Positions 44,146-44,958 of a stretch of DNA of 64,000 bases are shown one piece after another. Below the pieces are notes generated by a model that was not told the origin of the DNA, did no database searches, and was given only the letters and a program-made list of their open reading frames with translations. A program made the position numbers and the translations under genes. Position 1 is the first letter of the stretch. Every line of letters begins with the position of its first letter. Source of the stretch: Aquiluna sp. (lineage in GTDB: Bacteria > Actinomycetota > Actinomycetes > Actinomycetales > Microbacteriaceae). The stretch covers positions 1 to 64,000 of the forward strand of contig JAQWUU010000043.1 of the NCBI GenBank assembly GCA_029241985.1. Direction: 5' to 3'.

Positions 44146-44958
44146 CTAGCTAACAAGGGCCGGGATGATCGCCCCGGAGAAGATCTGCCAAGCCAACACG
44201 GTCTTAGCAACAAGGCTCAGAGTGATGTAGGTCTTCTCACCAAATAGGTAGTCCTTCCAAGGACCAATCTTCTTGTACTGGAAGGCCTGGTTGAAACCGA
44301 AGGTGTTGAAGAACAAGAACAGCGCCACGACGATGCCGTAGACAAATCCTGGGATGTCAGAAGCATTTGTTGCACCCGGCTGCCAGATGTAAAGAATCAG
44401 AATCAGCCAGGGAACGATTCCAGTCATTGAACCGAAGATGAATGGCAAGCCCTTGCCATTTCCTGGCGTCTCGTACTTTTCCTGCAGCGCACCAAACAAG
44501 ATCATCGAGGCGTTGACAGCAAAGATTGCGGACAGGGCGGCGATATCTGTGATGCCGTTTAGAAGAGCAATGCAGAAAATCATTACTGAAGAGCTGAGTG
44601 AATACTCAACCCAGCGGAAGTAGTTGTGGTTGAGCTTTAGGCCGCCCTTATATCTCTCAAAGAACATCGGTGAAGAGATGATGAAGTGAAACAGTGCCGA
44701 AAGCGCCAAGAAGCCAACGATTCCAGCTCCAATGTTGATGTCAAATAGCACCACTACGTCTGCTGGGGATGCTACTCCTGGAGGGCCGGTTGGATATTCA
44801 ATCTTTACTGGGAAAAGAATCTGATAGTCGAGCATCGTCAGAACGAATGAGAACCCAATCGCCTGGATTAGGTGCAATAAACCAGCACCAATGTTGTATC
44901 TGCGCAGGCCGGCGATTTGCTGGTCTTGGGTTTTTGCTACCTTTGTGGCTTTTGCCAT
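44146..44958 (-). CDS. heliorhodopsin
   Basis: 'LRRYNIGAGLLHLIQAIGFSFVL', 'RWVEYSLSSSVMI' (counterion Glu region), 'SLVAKTVLAWQIFSG' (Schiff-base Lys region), 7-TM hydrophobicity; start set at MAKATKV (44958) with AAGGAG 8 nt upstream. Confidence 0.93.
   Translation of the reverse strand: MAKATKVAKTQDQQIAGLRRYNIGAGLLHLIQAIGFSFVLTMLDYQILFPVKIEYPTGPPGVASPADVVVLFDINIGAGIVGFLALSALFHFIISSPMFFERYKGGLKLNHNYFRWVEYSLSSSVMIFCIALLNGITDIAALSAIFAVNASMILFGALQEKYETPGNGKGLPFIFGSMTGIVPWLILILYIWQPGATNASDIPGFVYGIVVALFLFFNTFGFNQAFQYKKIGPWKDYLFGEKTYITLSLVAKTVLAWQIFSGAIIPALVS

What the first reader, a model, noticed from the sequence alone, without database searches (positions are those of the whole stretch)
44146..44958. 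Heliorhodopsin gene in an actinobacterial catabolic/light-linked neighbourhood
The protein looks like a heliorhodopsin rather than a type-1 proton-pump rhodopsin, based on 'RWVEYSLSSSVMI' and 'SLVAKTVLAWQ'. Heliorhodopsin function is still debated, so genomic context matters. Here it is monocistronic, divergent from a DUF1801 gene, convergent with a ROK sugar regulator, and within 6.5 kb of a photolyase and SbtAB.
Basis: partly seen in the sequence, partly recalled or inferred. Interest (0 to 1): 0.82.

Follow-up and report, generated by a model that had tools for sequence, protein, structure and literature searches.

The report
Ordinary heliorhodopsin beside lost exporter gene
This is a genuine but ordinary light-absorbing membrane protein (a heliorhodopsin) in a marine-type Aquiluna bacterium; the surprise is that the exporter gene that sits just in front of it in its closest relatives has been deleted here, leaving a recognisable stump, while the light sensor itself stays well conserved.

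Summary
Confirmed: window 44146-44958 (-) encodes a 270-aa heliorhodopsin (Pfam PF18761 314 bits; NCBIfam HeR equivalog 332 bits; AlphaFold model matches 48C12 crystal structures), with retinal Lys252, counterion Glu118 and a cytoplasmic N-terminus by charge. It lacks the Glu/Trp pair linked to proton transport in viral heliorhodopsins. The genome is an Aquiluna (Luna-1 Microbacteriaceae) with a second, distant heliorhodopsin and one DTE-type (pump-like) type-1 rhodopsin, a set already reported for saltwater Aquiluna (PMC12422013). The 'light-linked neighbourhood' is only partly supported: the photolyase link is confined to the closest clade and is not one operon; SbtA is merely nearby. New here: the monocistronic look is secondary. 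In the sister species and both successive outgroups an MMPL-family exporter lies 31-106 bp upstream on the same strand; in the window it is deleted, leaving its last ~37 codons, with an internal stop, in front of the heliorhodopsin. Heliorhodopsin stays under strong purifying selection (pairwise dN/dS about 0.05), so MMPL is not an obligatory cis partner. Most likely a slow sensory photoreceptor acting by protein contact with a partner encoded elsewhere; the partner is unknown. New member of a known kind; modest interest.

The parts
44146..44958 (-). Heliorhodopsin HeR1, 270 aa; retinal Lys252, counterion Glu118
   Evidence: PF18761 313.7 bits, NF038020 332.4 bits, PDB 48C12 E=5.5e-80, Foldseek 6su3 TM 0.87-0.91, residues
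44967..44972 (-). AAGGAG ribosome-binding site of HeR1, in the same place in relatives
   Evidence: sequence; alignment with relatives
44993..45106 (-). Fossil 3' end of an MMPL-family exporter gene (about 37 codons, one internal TGA, original stop position kept)
   Evidence: six-frame match E=4.7e-5 in a whole-genome search; local score 103 against shuffle mean 37.8, max 59, 0 of 200
45209..45637 (+). DUF1801-like protein, divergent from HeR1
   Evidence: PF08818 18.7 bits, below cut-off; 40-65% identical to genes at HeR1 loci of Aquiluna and Rhodoluna
45662..47149 (+). CoA-acylating methylmalonate-semialdehyde dehydrogenase (MmsA/IolA type)
   Evidence: TIGR01722 671.9 bits against cut-off 448.5
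42874..44070 (+). ROK-family transcriptional regulator, convergent with HeR1
   Evidence: PF00480 125 bits
44099..44116 (-). Terminator-like hairpin between HeR1 and the ROK gene
   Evidence: consensus scan; one of 6 such sites found in 1.2 kb against 1.2 expected, weak evidence by itself
39417..42562 (-). Sugar-type ABC importer: binding protein 41480-42562, ATPase 40652-41401, permease 39417-40649
   Evidence: PF13407, PF00005, PF02653; ChvE/XylF-like, below equivalog cut-offs
37781..39298 (-). Photolyase-related protein (DPRP; CryB/(6-4)-type by its C-terminal Cys motif, the latter from memory)
   Evidence: PF04244 152.7 bits
51263..52237 (-). SbtA-type bicarbonate transporter, not part of the HeR1 unit
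   Evidence: PF05982 352.6 bits

Best explanation
HeR1 is a 48C12-type heliorhodopsin that works as a light sensor, not as an ion pump. Retinal bound to Lys252 and stabilised by Glu118 absorbs visible light; isomerisation drives a slow photocycle whose conformational change is passed through the basic cytoplasmic loops to another protein by direct contact. Shown here: family, fold, Lys, counterion, inward-facing charge pattern, absence of the known proton-transport residues, purifying selection. Inferred from studied relatives: slow photocycle, contact signalling. Not shown: the partner. Because HeR1 stays conserved after losing the MMPL gene that lies directly upstream of it in relatives, and because no other flanking gene is constant across the genus, the partner is most likely encoded elsewhere in the genome. 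Retinal is probably taken up, since no retinal-forming dioxygenase was found.
For: Family and fold. Residues K252, E118, H29, H91, S248, E241, Q227 conserved. TM6 positions that are E191/W195 in the proton-transporting viral HeR (PMC9448325) are L213/F217 here. Net charge +6 on the N-terminal side, -5 on the other. A separate type-1 rhodopsin, read here as having the DTE pump motif, covers energy capture. Three relatives are reported to act by protein contact: glutamine synthetase (PMC9529153), CPD-II photolyase (PMC9769723), ABC exporter OmrDE (PMC11109279). HeR1 pairwise dN/dS 0.04-0.08; dN of the window to outgroup G018 0.111 against 0.108 for G002, so no acceleration after MMPL loss. No blh (PF15461) in this genome while G002, G015, G018 and G020 have it.
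Against: No spectroscopy, expression or interaction data for this protein. No histidine kinase or other transducer was looked for across the genome. A weak transport activity cannot be excluded from sequence. The genome is 90.5% complete, so absences are provisional. dS values to the window are above 1 and partly saturated.
Confidence: 0.55

Rival explanations
1. HeR1 was, and in relatives still is, the light switch of the MMPL-family exporter encoded directly upstream, as OcHeR is reported to be for the OmrDE drug exporter; in the window's species the pair has broken up and HeR1 now modulates another MMPL paralogue or is on its way out.
For: MMPL gene 31-106 bp upstream of HeR1 on the same strand in G002, G015, G019, G021, G006, G018, and split by a contig end in G020; fossil in the window. 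Two more distant MMPL paralogues remain in the genome. Precedent PMC11109279.
Against: The MMPL orthologue is present in the three Aquiluna genomes without any HeR (G001, G004, G010). HeR1 shows no relaxed selection after the loss. None of 22 heliorhodopsin-bearing genomes elsewhere in the order showed an MMPL match directly beside HeR in the (truncated) list; nearest 5.5 kb in G190.
Confidence: 0.13
2. HeR1 binds and boosts the nearby photolyase-related protein, widening its usable light, as reported for Trichococcus.
For: Photolyase-related gene 4.9 kb away on the same strand, also near HeR1 in G002, G020, G021 and 9.7 kb away in G018. Precedent PMC9769723.
Against: Not in one operon: an ABC operon on the same strand and a ROK gene on the opposite strand lie between. 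The precedent is a class II CPD photolyase; this one is PF04244. Only the nearest clade has the linkage; G006 lacks it.
Confidence: 0.12
3. HeR1 transports protons or another ion.
For: Some viral heliorhodopsins do (PMC9448325).
Against: Lacks E191 and W195 equivalents (L213, F217); a DTE-type pump rhodopsin is already in the genome.
Confidence: 0.06
4. HeR1 and the divergent DUF1801-like protein form a functional pair.
For: The most widely shared adjacency: also beside HeR1 in Rhodoluna limnophila, which has no MMPL there.
Against: In G007 it is convergent rather than divergent, it is decayed in G019, and it is missing beside HeR1 in about half of Aquiluna.
Confidence: 0.08

Closest known systems
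Heliorhodopsin 48C12 (freshwater actinobacterium; PDB 6su3, 6uh3)
   Same: Fold (TM 0.87-0.91), all pocket and counterion residues checked, 7-TM with basic N-terminal side
   Different: About 54% identical; extra residues in the loop after TM1; W146, W163 and Y214 of 48C12 are A157, I174 and A225 here
HeR of Candidatus Aquiluna sp. IMCC13023 (G002)
   Same: 91% identical orthologue with the same convergent ROK gene, ABC operon and photolyase-related gene
   Different: Has the MMPL gene 34 bp upstream and a DUF305 gene downstream; its genome has blh
OcHeR with the OmrDE exporter (PMC11109279)
   Same: An exporter gene next to a heliorhodopsin, in relatives of the window's species
   Different: ABC-type heterodimer, not MMPL/RND; no interaction shown here; the gene is deleted in the window
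TfHeR with CPD-II photolyase (PMC9769723)
   Same: A photolyase-family gene in the neighbourhood
   Different: Other photolyase class, other transcription unit
Viral V2HeR3 (PMC9448325)
   Same: Same superfamily, conserved counterion Glu and TM7 Glu
   Different: HeR1 lacks the Glu/Trp pair tied to proton transport

Membership tests
Heliorhodopsin | Family model above curated cut-off | tested here: met
   PF18761 313.7 against 26.7; NF038020 equivalog 332.4 against 100
Heliorhodopsin | Retinal-binding Lys in TM7 and Glu counterion in TM3 | tested here: met
   K252 and E118 align with K241 and E107 of 48C12
Heliorhodopsin | Inverted topology, N-terminus in the cytoplasm | tested here: met
   Positive-inside rule on model helices: +6 on the N-terminal side, -5 opposite; indirect test
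Heliorhodopsin | Fold closer to 48C12/TaHeR than to type-1 rhodopsins | tested here: met
   48C12 E=2e-20 and TaHeR 4e-16; best type-1 match 2e-4
Heliorhodopsin | Slow photocycle with retinal | not testable with these tools
   needs purified protein
Proton-transporting viral heliorhodopsin | Glu at V2HeR3 position 191 and Trp at 195 | tested here: not met
   L213 and F217, residues as given in PMC9448325
Type-1 ion-pump rhodopsin | Bac_rhodopsin family (PF01036) match | tested here: not met
   Only PF18761 matched HeR1; the genome's PF01036 match is a different gene on C28
HeR-photolyase operon | HeR and photolyase in one transcription unit | tested here: not met
   ROK gene on the opposite strand and an ABC operon lie between
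HeR-MMPL gene pair of close Aquiluna | Intact MMPL gene directly upstream on the same strand | tested here: not met
   Only a 3' fossil remains

The most novel reading that the evidence does not exclude
In Aquiluna a heliorhodopsin gates an MMPL/RND-type exporter by light, a partner class not among the ten groups listed by Cho et al. 2024 (PMC11109279), and the window's species is a natural 'partner-loss' experiment in which the photoreceptor has been kept for another target.
Probability: 0.1. Interest if true: 0.55.

Novelty: new member of a known kind. Interest (0 to 1): 0.3.

Why it matters
Functions proposed for heliorhodopsins rest largely on which gene lies next door. This locus is a caution: the adjacent exporter gene shared by sister species has been deleted while the receptor stayed under strong selection, so adjacency alone did not mark an obligatory partner. 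It also offers a clean comparative pair (IMCC13023 with the exporter gene, the window's species without it) for testing partner hypotheses. The presence of two distant heliorhodopsins and one type-1 rhodopsin in a small genome is already published for saltwater Aquiluna.

Tried and rejected
DNA-level alignment of the fossil was weak (scores near the shuffle range for three of four relatives); the protein-level test was decisive. Alignment of the window's upstream region with the relatives' MMPL promoter region gave no convincing homology, so I do not claim that the MMPL promoter was fused to HeR1. No sigma-70-like promoter was found, uninformative for Actinobacteria. No Rfam element. A wider HeR-MMPL link was sought in 22 HeR-bearing genomes elsewhere in the order and not found in the listed matches; the list was truncated. 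Apparent MMPL neighbours in L079/L081 were a different subfamily not found by direct search. No paper holding both 'heliorhodopsin' and 'MMPL' in the library. Considered and rejected: assembly chimera as the cause of the missing MMPL gene, because the stump carries a stop codon and diverged residues, as decay would give and a misjoin would not.

Full report
What is there. The ORF at 44146-44958 on the minus strand encodes 270 aa from an ATG with an AAGGAG ribosome-binding site 8 nt upstream. It matches the Pfam heliorhodopsin model at 313.7 bits and the NCBIfam HeR equivalog at 332.4 bits, far above both cut-offs. The solved relatives found by sequence are all heliorhodopsins, 48C12 first. An AlphaFold model (mean pLDDT 85) matches 48C12 with TM 0.87-0.91 (E=2e-20) and the archaeal TaHeR next (4e-16), while the best type-1 rhodopsin comes at 2e-4. 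The retinal lysine (K252), counterion (E118) and residues H29, H91, S248, E241 and Q227 are all in place. Loops on the N-terminal side carry net +6, those on the other side -5, as expected for the inverted topology.

Which organism. The nearest named loci are Aquiluna, including Candidatus Aquiluna sp. IMCC13023 at 91%. The genome (1.31 Mb, 90.5% complete) has a second heliorhodopsin on contig C4, 38% identical to the first and in a separate deep clade, and one type-1 rhodopsin whose sequence reads DTE at the pump positions (my reading). Two heliorhodopsins plus one actinorhodopsin is the set already reported for saltwater Aquiluna in PMC12422013, which also reports that most second HeR copies are phylogenetically distinct. 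No retinal-forming dioxygenase (PF15461) was found here, although the same search finds it in four of the window's close relatives, so retinal is probably taken up; that paper makes the same point for most Luna-1 genomes.

The neighbourhood. In the window HeR1 stands alone: a convergent ROK gene downstream and a divergent DUF1801-like gene upstream, then a methylmalonate-semialdehyde dehydrogenase. In the close relatives G002, G015, G019, G021, G006 and G018 an 857-861-aa MMPL-family gene (PF03176, 217.9 bits for G002) lies upstream on the same strand with gaps of 31-106 bp, divergent from the DUF1801-like gene where that is present. In G020 the two genes sit at the ends of two contigs, consistent with the same order. 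In G007 the MMPL gene is close by in another order.

The gene loss. A whole-genome search with the IMCC13023 MMPL protein returned, besides two distant paralogues, a 36-residue match in the window at 44996-45103 with an internal TGA, E=4.7e-5. It lies exactly where the end of the MMPL gene should be. A translated comparison of the 250 bp upstream of HeR1 with seven MMPL proteins scores 103, against a mean of 37.8 and a maximum of 59 in 200 dinucleotide-preserving shuffles; the aligned stretch is LSFVRGKSRWQLPKXLDKILQNIDVESGKLERHRNRA against LMSVIGKAAWYLPKWLDKLLPDVDVEGAKLERLRSQA, ending at the same stop position. In the HeR tree the window is sister to G019/G021/G002/G015/G020 (98/80), with G006 and then G018 as outgroups, all with the MMPL gene upstream (G020 across a contig break). 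So the arrangement MMPL-HeR1 is ancestral for this clade and the window's lineage lost MMPL. I call it an apparent operon in the relatives; co-transcription is not shown.

What the loss says. HeR1 remains under strong purifying selection: pairwise dN/dS to relatives 0.04-0.08, and dN to outgroup G018 is 0.111 for the window against 0.108 for G002, so no acceleration (dS above 1 is partly saturated, so the relative-rate comparison is the safer part). The MMPL orthologue also exists in the three Aquiluna genomes without any HeR. Neither gene needs the other. Elsewhere in the order, no MMPL match was seen directly beside HeR in 22 genomes, with the caveat that the list was truncated.

Other neighbours. 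The photolyase-related gene is shared near HeR1 by G002, G020 and G021, by G019 up to its contig end, and lies 9.7 kb away in G018; elsewhere the best matches, mostly 41-50% identical, are not beside HeR1. It is of family PF04244, not the class II CPD photolyase of the Trichococcus case (PMC9769723). The DUF1801-like gene is the deepest shared neighbour, present also beside Rhodoluna limnophila HeR1, but it is decayed in G019 and reoriented in G007. SbtA is nearby in the block but nothing ties it to HeR1.

How it probably works. Sequence lacks the known proton-transport signature: where the proton-transporting viral protein has E191 and W195 (PMC9448325), HeR1 has L213 and F217. Three studied heliorhodopsins are reported to modulate a bound protein, with charged loop residues mattering. 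HeR1 has basic residues in its cytoplasmic loops too. The best-supported reading is therefore a slow sensory photoreceptor that acts by contact. The partner is not identified; the comparative evidence argues for one encoded elsewhere rather than next door.

Verdict. A real and well-conserved heliorhodopsin, a new member of a known kind in a genus where its presence is published. The useful addition is the lineage-specific loss of its upstream exporter gene, which tempers inference from gene adjacency.

Noticed in passing
own genome G000 contig C4:165-896 (L002, L059): Second heliorhodopsin, 38% identical to HeR1, in a separate clade; its best named relative is an Ilumatobacteraceae MAG protein (80%), which suggests horizontal exchange.
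   Followed up: partly
L051, L053, L054, L056, L057 (HeR2 loci): A conserved membrane protein of about 290 aa, convergent with HeR2 in 5 of 9 loci; resembles 'tryptophan-rich sensory protein' (TspO-like) from memory, no significant Pfam match. KatG or an MFS gene lies on the other side in several.
   Followed up: partly
L039/L106 (G019), between the dehydrogenase and MMPL genes: The DUF1801-like gene is decayed; only its last ~49 codons match.
   Followed up: partly
G000 as a whole: blh (PF15461) not found although four of the window's close relatives have it, so retinal supply differs between close species.
   Followed up: partly
L121, L123, L134 (titled Bifidobacterium breve), L068 (Auritidibacter), L133 (Clavibacter sp. 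BS5): Record titles do not fit: these HeR loci match freshwater actinobacterial ones, so the organism labels look wrong.
   Followed up: no
L032, L033, L034, L036 and L045, L048-L050: Another Aquiluna subset has a small PGPGW membrane-protein gene (PF09656) upstream or downstream of HeR1 on the same strand.
   Followed up: no
G190 C10:842446-850495: HeR with an MMPL gene 5.5 kb away on the opposite strand in another family of the order.
   Followed up: no
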